Below are positions 28,939 through 64,000 of a stretch of DNA of 64,000 nucleotides, piece after piece. Under the pieces are notes generated by a model that was not told the origin of the DNA, did no database searches, and saw only the letters and a list, made by a program, of their open reading frames with translations. The first letter of the stretch is position 1. Every line of letters starts with the position of its first letter. The translations under genes were made by a program, and so were the position numbers. Source of the DNA: Pisaster brevispinus (taxonomy: Eukaryota > Echinodermata > Asteroidea > Forcipulatida > Asteriidae); the NCBI GenBank assembly GCA_023634235.1, contig JAMKCF010000008.1, positions 1,121,001-1,185,000 of the forward strand. Direction: 5' to 3'.

Positions 28939-31900
28939 CTATGAGTCCCCCCTCTGCTGCTGTAAGACTAAGGTTGTAGCTCCCTCCAATTCCTCCATGA
29001 CTGCTATTTGAATTTCTCCTGATTGGGTGATGTTGATCTGGCCCTCATGGAGTGGTACGCCATCTTGTTCAATCCTCACCTATGGTACATGTAAGTGGAC
29101 AACAAGGCATAAATGTCATTACACCATGATTCTCTTTAGTTACATCAGGCCACTTTTGTTTTGCATTTATACCATGTCCTTTTGGTTGGTAAGCAGTTTG
29201 CAACAGCTAATTCTATTTTGTTGTATATTTGTTTTGTGACCTATCATACCACAGTTGAGGATTTCTGTACTTTTAAGAACATAAATCTCATCCTGTAATT
29301 ATTGTTTATCTTCCAAGCTGTCCATCAAAGAAGCGTGAGAATAGCTTTCGGTATGTATAACCTCACCTTCTTGATGACAGTGTTGCTTTCTTGCTGATGA
29401 TGCTCCTCGTCCTCCTGAGCTATATCAGATATATTAGAATCGACAGGTAGTTGAATATGAACCCCTTGCGTATGACTTCCATCCTCTGAGCTGTGAGAAT
29501 CAGTTGTATGGTCGTCTTGTTCTCCAAACTGCTTAAAGAAATAAAGACCTCTTCAAACTTGATACTCAAGAAGTTACGTAAAATTTGCAATGACGCCATG
29601 TAAACATCCCACTGATGAGCTGTGGTGGTCCGAAAAGTAATTGTGGCGTAACGACTTGTTTTTTGATCCGTTAGCTCTGATCGTTTTCAGAAGAATCTTC
29701 AGAAGAAAAGCCGAAGTATAGTTAAACTTGATACCCTCAGTTCTTACTTTTGCAACTCAAATGATGTAATTATAATAATCTGACAGAAGATCAACATCTC
29801 CTTGCAGCTCAAATGATGTGATTATAATAATCTTACAGAAGATCAACACATCCTTGTCCAACTCACCCTTTCTTTTAGAAATTGATCTGCATCACTGTTG
29901 CCTGACTTATACCCAAATGCTTTAACAGTCATGGGAAGGCCACGCTGCTTACGGCGGAATGCTGTGCGACACTTTGAGTCAATGTTCATTCTGATGCGGT
30001 GCCATTCACCATCGATGATCCCAAAATGCTTGATAAGGTGACCTTTTAAAGGGAACAAAATGTAGTACATACCATATCCATTCTTGAAACAAATCCTTTT
30101 TAGTTTTCCTACATGCTCTTAGGAAAATACCATAAAAATCACTGTTGAATATTTCCCATAAATGTTGATTATTCTGGAATACTCACATCTAAGTCCGTAG
30201 ATCATGAGTGGGTTTAATTGTTTCTTGCCATGCTTTCCAGTGCCAGACAGGTTTGAAGAAGCTTGTGTCTCTCTATCAAAAAGGTAGTCCAACAACTTGA
30301 GGGCACATTTCTCTGGTGTTTTGGATGTTTGCATGACATGCAACATATCACTGTGTGTAATGATAGAAAGGAACAATGTATTAGAAGGCCAACCGCTTTT
30401 TATAATTAAATAAATACATTTGCTTAGAGGTGTTTTTGAATGAGAGTTTGGCACATAATTGCGTAACATCTGGTAGTTTGTGGAAATCCTACAGCAGTAT
30501 TAAAATGATCAGACACTTACGACTGTGAGATGCCACATCGGACTCTGCATTCCACGTTTGCTTCATCTCCAAGCCAAGAACCATTTGGAAAGTCATCTAA
30601 GTATTAAAAAGAAAGTAAACCATGGTTTTGTTTTATTGTTATTCAAATCATGTAGTTTTTAAGTTGCAAACCTAATGTTTTGATTTGTTTTACCTTCCGT
30701 GTTTAGAGTTATTAGAGTGACATTCCGACTGATGCTCTGTGAAATTGGTGACTGGGGGGTGGCAGGAACCTGGTTGTGGTCTCCTATGAATGTCAACAAT
30801 CGGAAAAAAACATCAACAAATTAACAACTTTTAAGTAGAAAACTTTTGTGGAAACCACTACTTTACATAAATTTCAGTTAAACTAATGGCATTATTTAGG
30901 CATATTTTACCTTCTGGAGGAAAACCAATGACCACTGTATTACCAGGCGAAGCAGAACCATTTTCACTGAAAAGATAAATAATTTGACTTCTTATAATTC
31001 CTTTAATAGACTGGCGTAACAGTTCGTTTACTGCACTATTTAAGTGCCATAACTGGGTACAGCATTTGACAGTTGAGCAGGGACAAGAATGGTTTCCCAT
31101 TCTTCTGCGAAGTGGTAAACAAACTGTGACATCATCAGTACCAATGTCTATTACCGGTCTCCTCTACAAATTGTGTTTATCTGGCCACTGATCACTGGCT
31201 TGAGTTAGGTGCCGGCAGCAGATTTCCTGAAACGCTAGGATTAATCCTATCTCGAGTTAAGACAAGTAACTAGTCCTAACTTAGGATTAATCTTAAGGTT
31301 TACATGTTACAGTGCAAGGCTGGGACTCGTCCTAAGTCCTAAGATTAATCCTAAGTTAGGAAGAGTTTGGTGAAATCGACGGCAGGACAGTAAAGGAGAG
31401 CTGCAATGAAGCTGTCTTTCATTTATATTTTTTTGTTCAAATAAAACAGAGCACCCACTGCTTCAGTTTATACATTGATAAAAGGCAAAAGTATTTTGCA
31501 AGATCAGTCATATTTTCTCCAGAAAGGATACAATTATTCATTTGGACATCAATGTGAAGGTGATTTAACATTTTATGCCAATTCTTTGGAAACACTTACG
31601 GCGATTTCTCTAGTTCTTTGATTCTTGATAGAGTTCTTATGACAGATAAGTTAAGGTTGTCCATCTTGCGCCCCATCTTATAGCAGGTGTTGTGTAGATT
31701 AGTTAACTTACGCTCCATGCTGTCCAGCCGAAAAGATATTGCTTTGTTTATGTTGAAAAGAATTGTCTAGGAGGATAAGAATTTGAACAAAACAAGCAAA
31801 GATAAAAATTATAGACAGCAAATTAAGCAACCTTTGTTTCATCTTGTTTTATTTATTATTTTTTGGGTTGGGGTGGTACAAAAGGGGAACCAATTTTTAA

Positions 31901-32544
31901 CAAACTATAAATCACTTAATTAACTAAATACCTCACAAAACTGATAAGAATAAGTTTGATGGTGGTTGCTACAGTGACCAACCTTAACACTGTCGTCCAT
32001 TGTTATTGTTTCAGCATCATCTGTTCTCTGTCTCTTTGCTATCGGTTCTTCATCTTCAAACTGTGCTACTTCAATAAATAATATACCAAACAAAATATTA
32101 CCCCAAAACAGGTCCTATTGATTTTTAAGAATAATATTTGAATAAATACATTCAGGTATTTTTTTACTTGATGCTCACTTTGTAAACATAACAACTGTCT
32201 AATCTAGTTGGGCAATATCTGTCATCTAGTGCTAATGACTTTCAATCATGACAAGAGATTGAGCAATTTTTTCTTTAAAAGCTTGGTCTTTTTTAGGGCC
32301 AAATTGTTGAAGGAGTAGACTTTAAAGGCCTGGCATTTAGACTGAAATAGACGGTGAAAGTGTATTAGAATATTTTTTTGTCTGCTTGAATACAAACGAG
32401 GTTGGAAATGCCTATTGGATCAATTGAGCCATTCATACCTGCTTCTGTAAGGATGGTTGGTACAACAGGTATCTGTTCTACATCCATTTGTAACATTGCT
32501 TCATCACTTGTCTCCTCGTCATTCTTCAGTTTCATCGTTGTCAT
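28939..32544 (-). CDS. banp: BANP (SMAR1) BEN-domain transcription factor
   Basis: Nuclear BEN-domain protein; vertebrate BANP binds an unmethylated TCTCGCGAGA palindrome and activates CpG-island promoters. Ten coding exons (minus): 32439-32544, 31983-32068, 31600-31766, 30911-30966, 30694-30783, 30521-30596, 30187-30350, 29867-30042, 29367-29531, 28939-29079. They total 1227 nt (408 aa), somewhat shorter than human. An in-frame TGA sits just upstream of the chosen ATG. The N-terminal part has EPIAKRQR, then a coiled coil about 66-118 (ISFRLDSMERKLTNLHN). Next come NVTLITLN and DFPNGSWLGDE, then the BEN domain about 190-290, with LSGTGKHGKKQLNPLMIYG and NIDSKCRTAFRRKQRG nearly identical to vertebrate BANP. 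The tail is Gln/acid-rich, ending LVLQQQRGDS. Exon 2 could start three bases later (tandem AG). It lies between the two ZNF341-type genes. Confidence 0.94.
29158..29222 (+). repeat. Dispersed repeat, copy 2 (short segment)
   Basis: It matches the right half of the element at 15.1 kb: 'tttgcatttataccatg', then 'cttttggttggtaagcag' and 'cagctaattctatttt'. The hairpin half is absent. It lies in the last banp intron. Confidence 0.6.
29751..29853. repeat. 52-bp tandem duplication next to a banp exon
   Basis: Two copies (about 29751-29801 and 29803-29853) with a 52-bp period and a few differences contain 'attataataatct' and 'acagaagatcaaca'. The second copy lies within 15 bp of the exon end at 29867, so the duplication reaches the intronic side of that donor site. 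Confidence 0.85.
31211..31386. mobile_element. MITE-like element with degenerate terminal inverted repeats
   Basis: The ends 'gccggcagcagatttcc' and 'gtgaaatcgacggcagg' are inverted relatives. Internal palindromic 'aggattaatcct' blocks occur on both sides. It lies in banp intron 3 and is related in its ends to the element at 16300-16457. Confidence 0.6.
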
Positions 32545-33493
32545 CCTTGAGGTGCTTCAACACTTTACCACTATGAAAAAACAAATAATCAAGAAGTATA
32601 CAAACATTATGTAGACAAAAATACAGTGACAGATAATTGTTTGTGGATGCCAGCCCAAGCAATATTTGTTTGTTACCCATATTCCTGCCTTCGTCTACAA
32701 AAACCCTAAAATACTTTTCATCATGACTTAACTAGTTGAGAATCGTATAACCCCCTCCATCCTCCTGACGGTCTGGGACCATTGGAAGGATGGAGGGTTG
32801 GAGGGTTACGTTTATCGAGACTTCTCATCATCATACCACTCATAGTTGAACTGTCCTTGTGACCAATACATTCAGCTCAGTCATTGATTGAGTCAAACCA
32901 ACTACGAGGACCCACCAAAGCTTACATTTACAAAGCCCTAATTTAAATCATAAAAAACAATTTTTGTTACTTCCAACTTCTTAACTTAATCATACGGTAC
33001 TTTTGAATTGTTCTATTATGTTTTGAAAAAGGCTGCTTTTTAGGTTTTTTAAATTAATTAAATAGGTTAGGTGCCTAAATAAAACTAAACCTTGAAAAAA
33101 ACACCCCTTTTAAAAAAGTGGGGAAAAGGAAAAGTATGGGATATGTCAACCTAAAGTGTAATTTAAAAATCCAACCCCCAAAAACTAACATGAGCAGTGA
33201 GTGAGTTCAAAAATAAATTGTCAATACTAAATATAATTTAATTATACACAAAATCATAGAATATGAATTTATACCAACCCACGGCCAACAATTAGTTACC
33301 CGCCTAACCTAGGATCGTAACCCGTGGTTATAAGCGCAAGGGTAAAGCATTATAATTTTTGTACTGACTGAGTGTAGAACAGAATTCGGAAATTGCAAAA
33401 AACGTGTTGGTTCTATCATTCCATTTGGTTTGTGTTCAAACCAAACGCAGACTGTCAAGGTTACCAATACATCATCGTTTTCTGGATACTTAC

Positions 33494-33660
33494 GCTCAAT
33501 TGTGAGACACGATGTCACGATAATTCACTTGGATCGTATGTAAATAAAAGTTTCAAAAGTTTTCGCCAAGTTTTCTCAAAACTTCCCGTAATTTCTCGAC
33601 GAAATCCCGTTTCAAGACGAAACCCCGGAAAACACGATAGACGGCGATAATGGCGCTCCT
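33494..33660 (-). other. Probable 5' noncoding first exon of banp
   Basis: A strong donor GAGC|GTAAGTATCC on the minus strand marks an exon end at 33494. The acceptor 'ttcatag' about 32.57 kb fits as the next exon's start, placing the ATG in exon 2. The left limit (transcription start) is uncertain, roughly 33.64-33.66 kb. The region is CpG-richer than its surroundings. Confidence 0.5.
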
Positions 33661-33670
33661 TCTCGCGAGA
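33661..33670. promoter_or_regulatory. Perfect BANP-type palindrome in the banp promoter
   Basis: The sequence is exactly TCTCGCGAGA, the motif recognised by vertebrate BANP. It lies at the expected banp transcription start region, about 167 bp upstream of the exon 1 donor and about 610 bp upstream of the znf341 start codon. A YY1-like AATGGCGC occurs at 33649-33656 beside it. Presence is seen directly; function is inferred. Confidence 0.8.
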
Positions 33671-33970
33671 AATAAGGCGGTTTAACATACGGCGCATGAG
33701 CACTACATTTTGAAATGTGCAGTTGTATTTCCAGTGGGTAACTTTTGTATTAACTTGGGGGGGGGGGGGGGTTCCACGTTTACTATTAAAAGTCCATTTG
33801 TGGTTTTAATTTCTTTCTAAATATCACCGAGTTATTTATCATTATATCGCTGTATTTTTTGCTCAACTTTATTCTATGAATTATAGTATGATTTAAAAGT
33901 AGGTTGGTTTAATGGCGTTTGTTGTCTTCTGTGTTCAATTTTTAATGATAATACTGCTGTTTAAAATATC

Positions 33971-34078
33971 ATTTTCTATCACTATATTATAGTGATAGAA
34001 AATTAAATATAGGGTTGCATACTGTACACAATGATATATTGTATCACCGTGCACCAGTATGCAACCCTATATATTTTA
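33971..34078. repeat. Two adjacent palindromes upstream of znf341
   Basis: 33971-34003 is a nearly perfect palindrome built on 'ttctatcactata'. 34005-34078 is a second inverted repeat with arms 'tatagggttgcatactg' and 'cagtatgcaaccctata' around a 30-bp loop. They lie between banp and znf341, about 200 bp before the znf341 start codon, and probably are a MITE. Confidence 0.75.
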
Positions 34079-34277
34079 TTTTATTTTTTATTTCCAGGTT
34101 TTAGTTTGGGAGTTCCGGTTAAGTACGAGTACTTATCTGGAACTGTAACAGCAACATGTATTGCGTGACAGATGTGTGGACTGTAGATGACCGCGTCCCC
34201 TCTGCGTGTGTGCTGTTTCTGCTCTGCCGGTTGTTTTATGTGATCAGGATTTTTATGTGGTTTGCAATACAGACAAA

Positions 34278-37200
34278 ATGGCGCAAGCACTTTTCGACGC
34301 GTTGACTGGTAAGTTTGATTTTGAAACTCTGTTTATTCGAGCATTTGTTATAACTTAAGATAGAAATACTTAAAGAACCCATAGGGATCTCTAATTTGAT
34401 AAATTTTATGACAGGTTTGTAAGCTGTGTACTTTAGTTCATGAAGTAAGCACCAGCATTTGTCCAGAGTTTTGACTGTCGAGCAAGGAGCAAATTGCAAA
34501 TCACGAACAGCAGTGTTAAAAAAGCCTCCTCACATAAAATACAAGCGATGAATTTGTATTTCTAAAAGACATTTCTAGCGAAGTATACTCCAATAATTCA
34601 GTTAGGGTTAATTGAAGAGTTTAGTGCACAGAAATAGAAAGAAAGGACGAAAACTAAAGTTACTTTTTGAGGATGAAAAAATGTGTGATTTATTGTTGGA
34701 AGAGCGGGCATTCCTGATCTAGCGGGTGTGGAGCCATTCTTGGAAAAGCGATAACATTTAGGGAATAGCCAACTGGCTCACCGGCTGTTCCATCAAAACG
34801 CACCCATCAACTTGAATTCAACAGCATTGAATCACATTGATGTGTTTAGTAAAACAAATTCAGAGGGGGTGTGGGGAGGTTATCAATATTCATCAAACTT
34901 TTAATGACGGTGGTAAACTTAAAGGAAATTACTGATATTGATTTTCTTCTTTTCGTTCATAGTTCAGCTTTAAAAAAATCATCACTTACATGTAAATTGT
35001 TTTGGGCAGTAAAAGCATTCCCAAACTTTTATGGATTAATTTTAAAGTAGTTTTAAATTTACTCCTTTAACTACCTGCCCCCCCCAAAAAAAAAAACACG
35101 GGCCAAATTATAACAACATGAACATGTATTTACTTTATTTTGGGTTAAAGAAAGAAAAATTGACAACAGCAGGAATTCACTTTTTATTCCAGATATAAAA
35201 AAAAAAATAAACCAAAACAAGGGAAACTGATTGGGTAAATGTTAAATGATTTGGGGTTACCCAGTCAGTTTCCCTTGTGGTTTATTATTTGATTTGTATT
35301 TATTTGGGCTCTTTTCAAGAAAGATGGGCCTCTCTAACTTTTAAGTGCCTTACATTAACTAAATACGGCCTCTAAGTGTTCCTGAAAGCATCTCAACTCC
35401 TTAGGAGTATGCAGCACCGGCAGCCAAATGAATGCACAGGTTGCTAATCATTCACATGAAGGGCCCCTACCCTCACAAAGTCAGAGGTGTACATCTTGCT
35501 CCTAGGATACTCCCGGATGAGGAGAACTGCAATCAAGTGCAAAAAACGATAGCTATTTGTTTTAGTTGCTCACAAATATGGTTACAAGTATCGTAGCTGG
35601 GACTCAAACCCACATACTGGTGACTCGGCCACAAGAACTTGGGATCTATGTGCTAGACCAGAACCCACTTGCTCATCAATTTTACTGGCTGAACAAACAC
35701 TGACCTATTTTAAAGCAGACAAATAAAAAGAAATTTAAGCTTTTAATTAAAAGTACTAAAATATTTTCACAACCAAATTTTCATAATTTATTGTTCCTTT
35801 TATATAATATCCTGAAAACTATTCAGGAGATAAATTTAGACTAGTTCATCCAGCCTTAACTTGTTTTTCTCTCATTGACATAAGTGCACACCTCTTTTAT
35901 TATTGTTATTATTATTTGTTTACTTTATTTGTAGGTATGGACAACCAGACAGCCGTTCTGGCTGTTCAGTCTCTTGGATTGCTGGAGGGACAGACTGGTG
36001 CCATGCAAGATCCAAATCCAACAGGTATAGTATAAATCAGGGAATATGTATCTATTCCTAAACCTCTTGGCTTGTGTTTTTTGGCTGGGTGAATTAATCG
36101 GAGCTCGAAATCATGCTTATTATGTCTGATTCTGTTGTTGAATGATAAGGGACTAAGACAATTTAACAAAGCAGTAGAAGAGATTAATTAAGTGTATTAA
36201 TAAAAAAATAACTTTGTTTTCAAATTATCCCATTGTTTTTCTTAATTTAGGAATAGAAGAGGATGAGTTCAAGTGTGGAAGATGCAAGAAGAACTTCTCC
36301 TCTTTGACTAACTTCATGAATCACAAGCGAGAGCAGTGCATGCCTCCAAATCTCACCATCAACATCGCTCGCTCCCAGCCTAGTAACAGTGCCTTCACAG
36401 CAACCTTACAACCCAACCGAGGTTTGACATTCGGTAACATGTCTTCCTCCTCCCTATCGCAAGTTTCGCCGGGTGTAGTCCTGAATGAGGAGGTCCTGAT
36501 TTCCTCTTTCCACAATGTAGACCAGTTCTCTAATTCCATGCTGCAGACCACTCCAATCCAGTCTCTGACAGGATCCTACATGTCACCTCAATCACAGATT
36601 CTCTCCACAAACTCTAACACTCAGCAGACCTACAGCCTGTCAAATACAACTGTTCACAATAACAATCTGGCAGGCATCACTCTGCAATCCCATAATCAGG
36701 TAGGCAACAATATGATGCGATCTGGTCTGAGCACTCAGTCTACAATATCCCTCTCTGATGCCGGACTGACACAAGATTTGCTGACTGGCAGTGCGACATC
36801 CAATCTACAAGCACAGACGCAGCCACAGACCATCAACATCATATCACCCCCAGCTATCATATCACCTCAACCACAGCAGGGAACTCGCCGTCGTAGATCC
36901 ACTGCTTCAGGAGGTGAACCAGTCAAGAAAGAACAGCAACGTAAGAAGTGCAGCTACTGTGACAAAACATTCACCAAGAACTTTGACCTACAGCAGCACA
37001 TCAGAAGTCATACTGGGGAGAAGCCTTTTCAGTGTATAGTTTGTGGTAGAGCCTTCGCCCAGAAGTCTAATGTTAAGAAGCACATGCAGACCCACAAAGT
37101 GTGGCCTGGAGGTAGAGGTGCAACTCTTCCCAAGCAGGTAGGAAGGAATTTATTGTAAAATGCTTACATTGGTTTTTCCCAGGTGTAGCTAGTTGCACCA

Positions 37201-58059: not shown

Positions 58060-58800
58060 GAAAATGGCCATATCCCGCGTCCACAGAAGCGGAAGAAGCG
58101 TCTGCATCCCCAATACACTGCAGGGTACAGGAATATCGCCATATGCCAGATCCACAGCACCGAATGTTGCGGGCTGCATCCCCATACACTGTGCGCAAAG
58201 CAATGGTTACAGGAATATCGCCATATCCTGGGTTCACAATGGCCCATACGCTGTGCACAAAGCGTTGGGCTACAGGAATGTTGCCATATCCTGGGTTCAC
58301 AATGGCCCATACACTGTGCACAAAGCGTTGGGCTACAGGAATATTGCTATATCCCGGGTCCACAGCACCCCAATGTTGCGGGCTGCACCCCATACACTGT
58401 GCACAAGCGATTGGTGCAGGAAATATCGCCATATCCCGGATCCACCACGGCCCATACGCTGTGCACAAAGCTCGGGCTACAGGAATGTTGCCATATCCTG
58501 GGTTCACAATGGCCCATACACTGTGCACAAAGCGTTGGGCTACAGGAATATTGCTATATCCCGGGTCCACAGCACCCCAATGTTGCGGGCTGCACCCCAT
58601 ACACTGTGCACAAGCGATTGGTGCAGGAAATATCGCCATATCCCGGATCCACCACGGCCCATACGCTGTGCACAAAGCTCGGGCTACAGGAATGTTGCCA
58701 TATCCTGGGTTCACAATGGCCCATACACTGTGCACAAAGCATTGGGCTACAGGAATATCGGCCTATCCCGGGTCCACCACGGCCCGTTCACTGTGCACAA
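58060..58800. repeat. Satellite-like array with a 207-bp higher-order period
   Basis: Monomers of about 62-63 bp and 82 bp share 'cccatacactgtgcac' and 'ggctacaggaat', then 'gccatatcc'. The spacing of successive 'cccatac' blocks is 63, 82, 63 and 62 bp. The block 82+63+62 = 207 bp is repeated almost identically (the units beginning about 58324 and 58531). The period is a multiple of three, so long ORFs stay open in several frames on both strands. No gene is supported. Confidence 0.9.
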
Positions 58801-59890: not shown

Positions 59891-62800
59891 TTAATCTCCA
59901 CGTCGGCGATTTTTCTGTTTGCGGCGCTGTCTTCGTTTCCGTTTGTTATTCGGCCGCCTTGCATTGGCACCTGATTGACATAATAACAAAAAGCATTTAA
60001 AAAATAAGTTTGAGTGTACATTACATTTTTGCCTTAACGTTTGGTTAGTTGACATTTTACTCGTTGAAACACTAAAAAGATCCGAAATAGAATAACACTC
60101 ATGTATGTTCAACATTTTTCGTACATCAGTAGACGCCCCTGAATTACACAACACACTTTTTGCTAAACAAAGATTACCGTTCCAACACATACACTACAAA
60201 CCTGGCGTTGATACGTGACAACACTGGCACGGTGAGTTTTACAAACAATGGTAATGGAGATAACTAACCATTGAGTCGAAATTGTACGTTTCATACCGGA
60301 AAAGAATAAACTAACTGCAGTTTTAAGCAGATACCATTGCCCATCGTTGTGCGTGTTTTTTTCAGGCGGTTTGCTTTAACGCAAACCAATACGTCATTTC
60401 GACCAAAGATTCAAACATTCTGAATCAATTACAATGATAATTTTGAAGAGGAAAAACAGCAACCTACCACCAGTTTGTTCCTCAGAATCATCATCATCAT
60501 CATCATCTCCACGACCACCGAGAGCTACTCCGCCTTCTCCATCTTCGCTGGATTCCGAGTCGTCTCCCGCCGTGGGTGGGGCCCTAGTGGGATTGGTTAC
60601 AGGGGCAGATGTGGTGACTGGAACTTCAACTACTGGGGTAATGTCGAAAGTAGTATAGAACAGTTACTTAAACAGAGTAATCTAAAATAACTGGAACAAA
60701 ATATGCGATATACTATTTCAAAAAAATGTTATTTGAAATATTGTATTGACTTATGAAATCAACTTTATTAGGTGAGAGTCTTTCCTAAGAATGAAACAGT
60801 TTAACTGTCTGTACTTGCGATCATTACCGTCAACAAGAATTTTACAATCGTCATAAACTACTCAGCTTTTGGTGACTTAGGGTGATCTTTACTTTCTGCC
60901 TTTTATACTATGGACAATTCTATACAGCAAGTTACTTAATTGTGTTTTTCTCTGCAGCAATTCAAATTTTTTTCAACAAGGTTTTTGCAACAAGCTTAAG
61001 TCTTTGTTTCTTCGAGACGAGTTTAGAGACACCGACATAACATTTTAGGAGTGAAACTTACCTTGGCAGGCAAAGGTGTATTCTAAATCAAGGCACTCCT
61101 CTCCGTTCGCACACGGGTTACTTAGGCACTCGTCACCATCTGTGGATGAAGTCATTTTGAAAATTATAAATCGAAAATAAAGTGGACGAGCGAAATCGCG
61201 GACGGGCATTTAGAAGAGGTCGTAAAGTCAAATGATATTCCACGGGAGACTCGAAAATGCACCCCGATAAAAACGTGTTTTTTCTCATTTGCCTGAGTGG
61301 TTTAAACAAAACATGCGTTTCTGTCACTTGATTCTTCCTGCTGCCATTTATTGAAAACAAAAGTGGGCTGTTTATAAGAGATATCAGTTCAGGTAATGTC
61401 TTAAATTTGACCATTAAACCTTACCTATCCGGTAGCTGACACTGAATCCTTCACGCGTTTTCAACACATCTGTGTACAGATTCAACCACGCCCTGTCCCC
61501 TGGGATCTCGATGGTAAACGGCATTCCCATGGATGCATCCAGACCCTCTGCTCCAAACGCAATGAGATTCTCTCGATAGTCAGCAACCGAACCATTGCCA
61601 AGAGACAATTCATCCACTCCCTCGAGACTCAATGCATGGATAGTAATCTCCACTTTCTTGGCGTCAGGGACCCCGACGAAGTAGCTGCAATTTTGGTTGT
61701 TTGGGTAGGGAGAGGGGAAACCAGGGGAGGTGATCAAACCTTCTCTCTCACCGTAGAAGTTCCTGTTGACGTCATTACAACTAGAAACTGAAACAGGAAA
61801 ACAAAATTAATCAGTCGCTGAAAAAGACAAATTACGTCCGTGTGTGGTTCTTTCTTCTTCGTTCAACTTTTCAAAATTGTTCATACTTATGTTTTAATTT
61901 GCTATAGTTTTGTAGAAGTATAACAGGTACCGGTATCAAGTTATTTGTGAAGTCTACATAGTATACAAGCTGTGATAATTTTTACTTATATTCCAGGATC
62001 ATTTGATGATTTGTATAAAACACTTACCGATTTCAGTCTGACAGAAATCGCCTTGGTAATTCACGGGGCACAGACAGTAAGGGCTGCCAGTGATGGGTTT
62101 GGATTCACACACTGCATTCTGCTTGCAGGGATTTGGATTGCATGACACTGAGGAAAGGGAGATAATTCAAGATAAATGGCTAAAATTATCAGAAAGGGTG
62201 TTTAAAATGTGATTTCGGAGTGGGTTTTTATGAAGTTTTAAATAGACTGTGTAATAGACTTACATAATACTTAATAATACTTACATCCGATTGGCTGTTC
62301 ACAAATATAGTCAAACTCGATGTCCATGCAAGTTTCTCCTGGCAAGCAAGGTTCTGGCAAACACTCGTCTCCGTCTAAAACAGATCATAAAAACAGGTTT
62401 AATACTACGTGACCGCACCAACTGTCCGTGTCTTTGTAGTGAATGAGTGATGCACTTTGATGGATTTTATTTGGTTCAAGTAATGTGGTGAGCGAAATCG
62501 CGGACGGGCATTTAGAAGAGGTCGTAAAGTCAAATGATATTCCATGGGAGACTCGGAAATGCACCCCGATAAAAACGTGTTTTTTTCCTCATTTGCCTGA
62601 GTGGTTTAAACAAAACATGCGTTTCTGTCACTTGTTTCTTCCTGCTGCCATTTATTGAAAACAAAAGTGGGCTGTTTATAAGAGATATCAGTTCAGGTAA
62701 TGTCTTAAATTTGACCATTAAACCTTACCTATCCGGTAGCTGACATTGAATCCTTCACGCGTGTTCAACACATCTGTGTACAGATTCAACCACGCCCTGT

Positions 62801-64000
62801 CCCCTGGGATCTCGATGGTAAACGGCATTCCCATGGATGCATTCAGACCCTCTGCTCCAAACGCAATGAGATTCTCTCGATAGTCAGCAACCGAACCACT
62901 GCCAAGAGTCAACTCATCCACTCCCTCAAGACTCAATGCATGGATAGTAATCTCCACTTTCTTGGCGTCAGGGACCCCGACGAAGTAGCTGCAATCTTGG
63001 TTGTTTGGGTAGGGAGAGGGGAAACCAGGGGAGGTGATCAAACCTTCTCTCTTACCGTAGAAGTTCCTGTTGACGTCATTACAACTAGAAACTGAAACAG
63101 GAAAACAAAATTAATCAGTCGCTGAAAAAGACAAATTACGTCCGTGTGTGGTTCTTTCTTCTTCGTTCAACTTTTCAAAATTGTTCATACTTATGTTTTA
63201 ATTTGCTATAGTTTTGTAGAAGTTTAAAGGTACCGGTATCAAGTTATTTGTTAAGTCCTAAGTATACAAGCTGTGATAATTTTTACTTATATTCCAGGAT
63301 CATTTGATGATTTGTATAAAACACTTACCGATTTCAGTCTGACAGAAATCGCCTTGGTAATTCACGGGGCACAGACAGTAAGGGCTGCCAGTGATGGGTT
63401 TGGGTTCACACACTGCACTCTGCTTGCAGGGATTTGGATTGCATGACACTGAGGAAAGGGAGATAATTCAAGATAAATGGCTAAAATTATCAGAAAGGGT
63501 GTTTAAAATGTGATTTCGGAGTGGGTTTTTATGAAGTTTTAAATAGACTGTGTAATAGACCTTATACTTACATGCGATTGGCTGTTCACAAATGAAGCCA
63601 AACTCGATGTCCATGCAAGTTTCTCCTGGCAAGCAAGGTTTTGGCAAACACTCGTCTCCGTCTAAAACAGATCATAAAAACAGGTTTAATACTACGTGAC
63701 CGCACCAACTGTCCGTGTCTTTGTAGTGAACGAGTGATGCACTTTGATGGATTTTATTTGGTTCAAGTAATGTAAAGGAAATCAAATTGCATTATCAGAG
63801 GGGAATCTTGCAAGCTTTCACTTTGAATATCAGTTGCTAATTAAACAACAACAAATGTAATCGGGTAAAACAAAAATAACAAACCTATTCTCCATGAGAG
63901 GTTAAATCCTGTGTTCTGGCCTGCAGAGTCTGTCTTCAGATTAATCCATGCCCTGTCCCCTATCACGTCAAGGGGACCCGGCAACGGCAAGACAGACGAC
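59891..64000 (-). CDS. Secreted CUB/EGF mosaic protein, 3' part (partial)
   Basis: Extracellular multidomain protein; the 5' part lies beyond the window. Exons in coding order: CUB-3 end 63885-64000; four-Cys module 63572-63661; EGF 63329-63448; CUB-2 62729-63091; four-Cys module 62285-62374; EGF 62028-62147; CUB-1 61425-61787; four-Cys module 61062-61139; linker 60468-60632; tail 59891-59970. All internal exons are phase 1-1. The CUB domains (about 118 aa: GLITSPGFPSPYPNNQNC ... GDRAWLNLYTD) keep only the first Cys pair. The EGF repeats have six Cys (SCNPNPCKQNAVC...). The DGDEC modules have four Cys. The linker is Pro/Thr-rich, then acidic (GGRGDDDDDDSEE). The tail is strongly basic and ends RRRGD. 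It resembles echinoderm fibropellin-type matrix proteins by domain content only; no exact orthologue is recognised. Confidence 0.85.
61188..62486. repeat. Tandem segmental duplication, copy 1 (about 1.3 kb)
   Basis: It matches 62490-63773 across exons and introns alike. It contains CUB-1, one six-Cys EGF exon and one four-Cys exon. The offset to copy 2 is 1302-1304 bp at one end and 1287 bp at the other, reflecting small intron indels. Confidence 0.95.
62490..63773. repeat. Tandem segmental duplication, copy 2
   Basis: This is the second copy of the three-exon cassette. The CUB exons differ at 9 of 363 bases. The EGF and four-Cys exons differ at 2 of 120 and 5 of 90 bases. Because every exon is phase 1-1, the cassette adds about 191 residues in frame. 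Confidence 0.95.

What the first reader, a model, noticed from the sequence alone, without database searches (positions are those of the whole stretch)
33649..33670. banp promoter carries a perfect BANP-binding palindrome: possible autoregulation
TCTCGCGAGA at 33661-33670 is exactly the site bound by vertebrate BANP, and it sits at the inferred start of the banp gene itself. A search by eye found no second perfect copy in the 64 kb. The DNA-binding BEN segment (NIDSKCRTAFRRKQRG) is almost unchanged from vertebrates, so the same specificity is likely. Together these suggest an old self-controlling loop. The site could also serve znf341, whose start is about 610 bp away on the other strand.
Basis: partly seen in the sequence, partly recalled or inferred. 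Interest (0 to 1): 0.75.

Follow-up and report, generated by a model that had tools for sequence, protein, structure and literature searches.

The report
BANP site at banp's own promoter
In a sea star, the likely shared start region of the regulator gene banp and its back-to-back neighbour znf341 holds one perfect copy of the DNA word that vertebrate BANP protein binds, so BANP may control its own gene; this fits known promoter biology but is unproven.

Summary
TCTCGCGAGA is at 33661-33670, the only copy in the window with up to one mismatch (0.005-0.009 perfect copies expected). It lies in the window's strongest CpG peak (rank 1 of 3,186 windows), between divergent banp (start codon 32544) and znf341 (start codon 34278). 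Sea star orthologues support both start codons. BANP's DNA-reading helix IDSKCRT is identical in the 10 animal sequences aligned, and only one banp gene was found in this genome. In vertebrates the same 10-mer drives bidirectional transcription (PMC6192621, passages). Best reading: one shared bidirectional banp/znf341 promoter with one BANP site; activating self-control is likely but inferred. Against an established BANP regulon here: 23 of 35 sampled motif loci fall in three multi-copy groups; CpG density around copies equals that around a control word; ncapg and wrnip1, direct targets in zebrafish, show no copy in the upstream DNA fetched. No start-site, binding or cross-species promoter data were available.

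The parts
33661..33670 (.). TCTCGCGAGA, perfect BANP motif / CGCG element (palindrome)
   Evidence: Motif identity from PMC9363121 (passages) and PMC6192621 (passages).
33281..33920 (.). CpG-rich peak, likely shared promoter of banp and znf341
   Evidence: Highest CpG o/e (1.75) and CpG count (23 per 300 bp) of 3,186 windows; still 1.70 in 33401-33700 without the motif. No TATAAA on either strand in 33300-34320. 33560-33760 is single-copy in the genome.
33650..33655 (+). ATGGCG, YY1-like core 5 bp from the motif (motif name recalled)
   Evidence: Genome-wide pairing of the motif with ATGGCG on one side within 30 bp is not enriched (4 against 3 for the reversed pattern); that pattern does not include this CGCCAT-side arrangement.
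32439..32570 (-). first coding exon of banp; start codon 32544-32542; 5' acceptor at 32570
   Evidence: protein start agrees with Asterias rubens BANP P0001.
29875..30596 (-). banp exons coding the BEN DNA-binding domain (three exons inside this span; boundaries fitted by eye)
   Evidence: Pfam BEN PF10523.
34098..34308 (+). znf341 exon with start codon 34278-34280 and a strong acceptor at 34098
   Evidence: N-terminus MAQALFDALTG agrees with Asterias rubens ZNF341 P0121.
33738..34097 (+). putative znf341 5'UTR intron (donor TGG|GTAACT at 33737, 4.6 bits; a better-scoring donor at 33898, 6.5 bits, is possible)
   Evidence: Prediction only.
33966..34084 (.). two adjacent inverted repeats (MITE-like) inside the putative znf341 intron
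   Evidence: DNA fold z -12.1. Its T-rich edge adjoins the 34098 acceptor, so that acceptor may be partly repeat-derived.

Best explanation
33.3-33.9 kb is a TATA-less, CpG-rich bidirectional promoter shared by banp (-) and znf341 (+), and TCTCGCGAGA is its central activating element. Oligomeric BANP binds the unmethylated palindrome as a pair of BEN domains, opens chromatin and supports transcription both ways, so that BANP contributes to its own expression (positive autoregulation) and co-drives znf341. Shown here: the exact site, the CpG peak, divergent gene order, orthologue-supported start codons, conserved DNA-contact residues, one banp gene. Shown elsewhere (vertebrates): BANP binding to the motif, bidirectional activity, methylation sensitivity, activation of targets. 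Inferred: both transcription starts, binding in this animal, the sign and strength of the loop.
For: Motif exact and unlikely by chance in place. Top CpG peak of 3,186 windows at the motif. Start codons 1,117 and 608 bp away on opposite strands, with acceptors just upstream of or near both start codons that allow untranslated first exons. Promoter region single-copy, so not itself a repeat. BANP here: 87% identical to Asterias rubens BANP; IDSKCRT invariant in 10 of 10 aligned animal sequences; base-contacting S313, R316 and T317 of human BANP kept, and 11 of 14 contact residues named in PMC10206803 section 4 and PMC11472053 section 16 kept (my count on the alignment; Q273, Y305 and S310 differ). 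PMC6192621 passages: one element is enough for divergent starts, e.g. POLR1C/YIPF3. PMC9363121 passages: Banp acts as activator at such sites; banp mRNA is not detected in banp mutants, which the authors ascribe to mRNA decay.
Against: No transcript, ChIP or reporter data for this animal. Genome-wide support is weak: of 35 motif loci read on contig C1, 23 are in three multi-copy groups; central CpG counts do not differ from 15 control loci (one-sided Mann-Whitney p 0.39); motif with ATGGCG within 30 bp 4 against 3 reversed. No copy within one mismatch in 30 kb at and above the ncapg exons fetched, or in about 5 kb above the wrnip1 N-terminal exon. The best-scoring donor for a banp 5'UTR exon (32926, 7.6 bits) lies outside the CpG peak; those inside it score 5.8-6.2. 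Contact residues Q273, Y305, S310 differ from human.
Confidence: 0.48

Rival explanations
1. The site is a neutral or chance CpG-rich 10-mer in an ordinary unmethylated promoter and does nothing special.
For: Copies occur 531 times in the genome, many in repeats, with no CpG-context difference from the control word.
Against: Local expectation is about 1e-4, and the site sits in the promoter of the very gene whose vertebrate product binds it, with an unchanged recognition helix.
Confidence: 0.27
2. The element is a working promoter element, but it mainly serves znf341 and banp starts elsewhere (for example near 32.6 kb, just above the 32570 acceptor region), so there is no loop.
For: banp ATG is 1,117 bp from the motif and its 5'UTR intron is only predicted. 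znf341 is nearer (608 bp) and has the stronger upstream acceptor.
Against: No CpG peak near 32.4-32.7 kb (best o/e 0.53) whereas 33.3-33.9 kb is the top peak; the element acts both ways in vertebrates.
Confidence: 0.12
3. The site is used, but by another protein: a Kaiso/ZBTB33-like zinc finger or one of the other BEN-domain proteins.
For: Kaiso is reported at TCTCGCGAGA in human cells (PMC3663758 and PMC12133338, search listing and abstract start only). Besides the banp exons, 15 Pfam BEN matches were found in this genome, several in broken frames.
Against: PMC9363121 reports the motif as the most enriched one in chromatin that closes in banp mutants (passages). The BANP domain query matched only banp itself in this genome.
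Confidence: 0.07
4. BANP binds its own promoter but represses it (negative feedback).
For: Repressor roles of BANP/SMAR1 are in the literature (recalled); negative loops are common among transcription factors (recalled).
Against: Zebrafish motif-bearing genes go down in mutants (31 of 81 down-regulated genes) and the motif was not found among 258 up-regulated genes (PMC9363121 passages).
Confidence: 0.06

Closest known systems
CGCG element / Banp motif promoters of vertebrates (PMC6192621; PMC9363121)
   Same: Same 10-mer, TATA-less CpG-rich setting, single element between divergent genes as at POLR1C/YIPF3.
   Different: Invertebrate deuterostome; low-GC genome with a local CpG peak, not a classical vertebrate CpG island; transcription starts unknown; genome-wide promoter enrichment not shown here.
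Human BANP BEN domain bound to CGCG DNA (PDB 7yuk, 8htx, 8yzt; PMC10206803, PMC11472053)
   Same: Recognition helix IDSKCRT and the base-contacting residues.
   Different: Q273 to T, Y305 to H, S310 to N; H at the 305 position is shared by the seven other invertebrate sequences aligned.
Autoregulated transcription-factor genes in general
   Same: Factor's own motif in its own promoter.
   Different: No functional evidence here. I saw no report of BANP self-regulation in the listings; Grand et al. 2021 is not held, so it could be reported there.

Membership tests
CGCG element / BANP-motif promoter | Exact TCTCGCGAGA | tested here: met
CGCG element / BANP-motif promoter | CpG-rich, TATA-less promoter context | tested here: met
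   Top CpG window of 3,186; no TATAAA in 33300-34320.
CGCG element / BANP-motif promoter | Within about 20-70 nt of a transcription start, often divergent starts | not testable with these tools
   No transcript data. Divergent start codons on both sides are shown.
CGCG element / BANP-motif promoter | Motif enriched at promoters across the genome of the species | tested here: inconclusive
   531 copies against 190 for AGACGCGTCT (inflated by an array on C8), 189 and 125 for reversed words; much of the excess is repeats; no CpG-context difference.
CGCG element / BANP-motif promoter | Bound by BANP in vivo, lost on methylation | not testable with these tools
   Needs ChIP or CUT&RUN and bisulphite data.
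BANP orthologue | BEN domain with BANP-type recognition helix | tested here: met
BANP orthologue | Best matches are named BANP; a single gene | tested here: met
   The listed hits that carry a gene-specific name are BANP (best 120 of 884 shown; some are unnamed or 'hypothetical'); in this genome only the three window exons match.
Autoregulatory transcription factor gene | Own binding site in own promoter | tested here: inconclusive
   Site present; that it is in the banp promoter depends on an untranslated first exon that is only predicted.
Autoregulatory transcription factor gene | Site kept in relatives; expression responds to the factor | not testable with these tools
   No animal genome other than the window's own was within reach; no expression data.

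The most novel reading that the evidence does not exclude
banp and znf341 form an old head-to-head pair whose shared promoter is switched by BANP itself, so that the CpG-promoter opener BANP is its own target in an invertebrate lineage without classical CpG islands, and it hard-wires znf341 to BANP levels. The two genes sit on contigs of identical length in Asterias rubens, the hemichordate Glandiceps and the snail Haliotis asinina (3 of the 6 invertebrate species with contig lengths in both lists), which would fit ancient linkage; Acanthaster, Patiria and Gigantopelta do not show it.
Probability: 0.1. Interest if true: 0.7.

Novelty: new member of a known kind. Interest (0 to 1): 0.42.

Why it matters
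If true, it extends the BANP/CGCG promoter logic from vertebrates to echinoderms, gives BANP a built-in self-sustaining loop, and makes it testable in sea star embryos whether opening of CpG-rich promoters by BANP predates vertebrate CpG islands. It also names a second, unexpected target, znf341.

Tried and rejected
Rejected: that the promoter is itself part of a repeat (33560-33760 has one match in the genome, itself). Rejected as proof: the raw genome excess of 531 copies against 190/189/125 for control words. 15 copies are one Polinton/Maverick-like element confined to C1, further groups of 5 and 3 loci exist, and the control word is itself inflated by an array on C8. The 12-mer TCTCGCGAGAAA has 39 matches (two of them are one palindromic site) against 31 for its reversal, far below the roughly 100 expected from 531 copies with random flanks (my arithmetic), which again points to repeats.

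Tried without use: codon-usage scan of 15 motif loci and 14 control loci for coding exons: no clear promoter pattern; at least one copy (L050) looks to lie inside a coding frame, and L005 next to a retroelement-like frame (my reading). Papers: PMC13317027 (echinoderm regulatory elements) has no match for CGCG, Kaiso, ZBTB33 or core promoter terms. Not tested: cenpt, the third zebrafish target named, and banp promoters of other animals.

Rows dropped or overlapping: L003 and L004 overlap and were both counted; L055 holds two copies, so 35 loci hold the first 36 of the 43 copies listed on C1. One search compared all loci, repeats included; the 11 ungrouped loci were not tested apart.

Full report
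What was checked. The palindrome TCTCGCGAGA is at 33661-33670. It is the only copy with at most one mismatch in the 64 kb. Shuffled windows hold 0.32 such copies on average; perfect copies are expected 0.005-0.009 times per window and about 1e-4 times in the local CpG-rich stretch.

Where it lies. It sits in the peak of CpG density of the window: 33281-33920, with the highest o/e and count of 3,186 sliding windows, still 1.70 o/e for 33401-33700 when the motif is cut out. No TATAAA is present in 33300-34320. The 201 bp around it occur once in the 549.7 Mb genome.

The two genes. On the minus strand banp starts coding at 32544; the protein start MTTMKLKNDEETSDEA agrees with Asterias rubens BANP (MTTIKLKSDEETSDET). 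On the plus strand znf341 starts at 34278, and its start MAQALFDALTG is identical in Asterias rubens. BANP is 87% and ZNF341 91% identical to Asterias rubens, so the animal is a sea star close to, but probably not, that species. The start codons lie 1,117 and 608 bp from the motif. Both genes have acceptors upstream of their start codons: 32570 for banp (10.1 bits) and 34098 for znf341 (16.1 bits; 3 of 7,419 AG sites are as good). Untranslated first exons reaching back to the CpG peak are therefore plausible on both sides, but donors are only moderate (banp: 33494 5.8 and 33300 6.2 bits inside the peak, 32926 7.6 bits outside; znf341: 33737 4.6, 33898 6.5 bits). The 34098 acceptor adjoins a MITE-like inverted repeat, which weakens it as evidence.

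The protein. The BEN domain matches human BANP structures (7yuk, 8htx, 8yzt, 7yug; best E 4.3e-54). By my count on that alignment 11 of the 14 DNA-contact residues named in PMC10206803 (section 4) and PMC11472053 (section 16) are kept, including base-contacting S313, R316 and T317; Q273, Y305 and S310 differ. IDSKCRT is invariant in the 10 sequences aligned: the window, eight BANP proteins picked from the 120 listed that range from brachiopod to whale, and Asterias. Only the banp exons in this window match the BANP BEN query in this genome; 15 other, more distant Pfam BEN matches exist.

How it would work. In vertebrates this 10-mer alone starts divergent transcription in CpG-island promoters, a flank-exchanged version (AGACGCGTCT) is dead, and methylation abolishes activity (PMC6192621, abstract and passages). 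BANP binds the unmethylated palindrome as an oligomer (PMC11472053 sections 16 and 18), and zebrafish genes with the motif fall when Banp is lost (PMC9363121, passages). Put together, the interval is best read as a bidirectional banp/znf341 promoter with one BANP element, which makes BANP an activator of its own gene. Binding, starts and sign are inferred.

Results against. Genome-wide support is thin. TCTCGCGAGA occurs 531 times, AGACGCGTCT 190, reversed words 189 and 125. Yet of 35 motif loci read on C1 (holding the first 36 of 43 copies there), 15 are one Polinton-like element and 8 more fall into two other multi-copy groups; 12 copies in 11 loci remain, against 13 listed copies of the control word on the whole of C1. 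CpG counts around motif and control loci do not differ (35 against 15 loci, p 0.39). The motif is not tied to ATGGCG within 30 bp (4 against 3). Two of the three zebrafish targets named in the abstract were looked at: ncapg (30 kb fetched at and above its N-terminal exons) and wrnip1 (about 5 kb above its N-terminal exon) have no copy within one mismatch there; one one-mismatch copy lies inside wrnip1. So either the BANP regulon has turned over, or the motif is used at few genes here, or the banp copy is incidental.

Literature. I saw no report of BANP self-regulation in the listings. Grand et al. 2021 (Nature) is not held, and supplementary target lists could not be opened, so a vertebrate precedent cannot be excluded. 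In zebrafish banp mutants banp mRNA is not detected; the authors suggest mRNA decay. That would also fit positive autoregulation, but does not show it.

Linkage. In the protein listings BANP and ZNF341 carry the same longest-contig length in Asterias rubens, Glandiceps talaboti and Haliotis asinina, and different ones in Patiria, Acanthaster and Gigantopelta. This shows at most a shared chromosome, not adjacency.

Verdict. It is a new member of a known kind with a simple set of tests.

Noticed in passing
G000 contig C1, e.g. L010 1-3010 (and 14 further loci): A Polinton/Maverick-like element (packaging-ATPase-like, integrase and chromodomain-like frames by my reading) carries a perfect TCTCGCGAGA; all 15 exact copies of its 19-mer are on contig C1, a striking confinement to one chromosome.
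   Followed up: partly
G000 contig C8, 21.16-22.47 Mb: AGACGCGTCT occurs 17 times at mostly 66-98 kb steps in the listed part, suggesting a very long-period repeat array.
   Followed up: no
window 33966-34084: Two adjacent inverted repeats forming a strong hairpin (z -12.1), MITE-like, next to the znf341 acceptor.
   Followed up: partly
window 61414-61806 and 62718-63110 (- strand): Two CUB-domain copies, 384 of 393 bases identical: a recent tandem duplication about 1.3 kb apart.
   Followed up: partly
window 58126-58777: 207-bp tandem repeat, 3.1 copies, open in several frames on both strands.
   Followed up: no
G000 genome, 15 places: 15 Pfam BEN-domain matches outside banp, 7 with in-frame stops, suggesting repeat-borne or decaying BEN genes.
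   Followed up: no
listings: BANP and ZNF341 lie on contigs of identical length in Asterias rubens, Glandiceps talaboti and Haliotis asinina, hinting at old linkage.
   Followed up: partly
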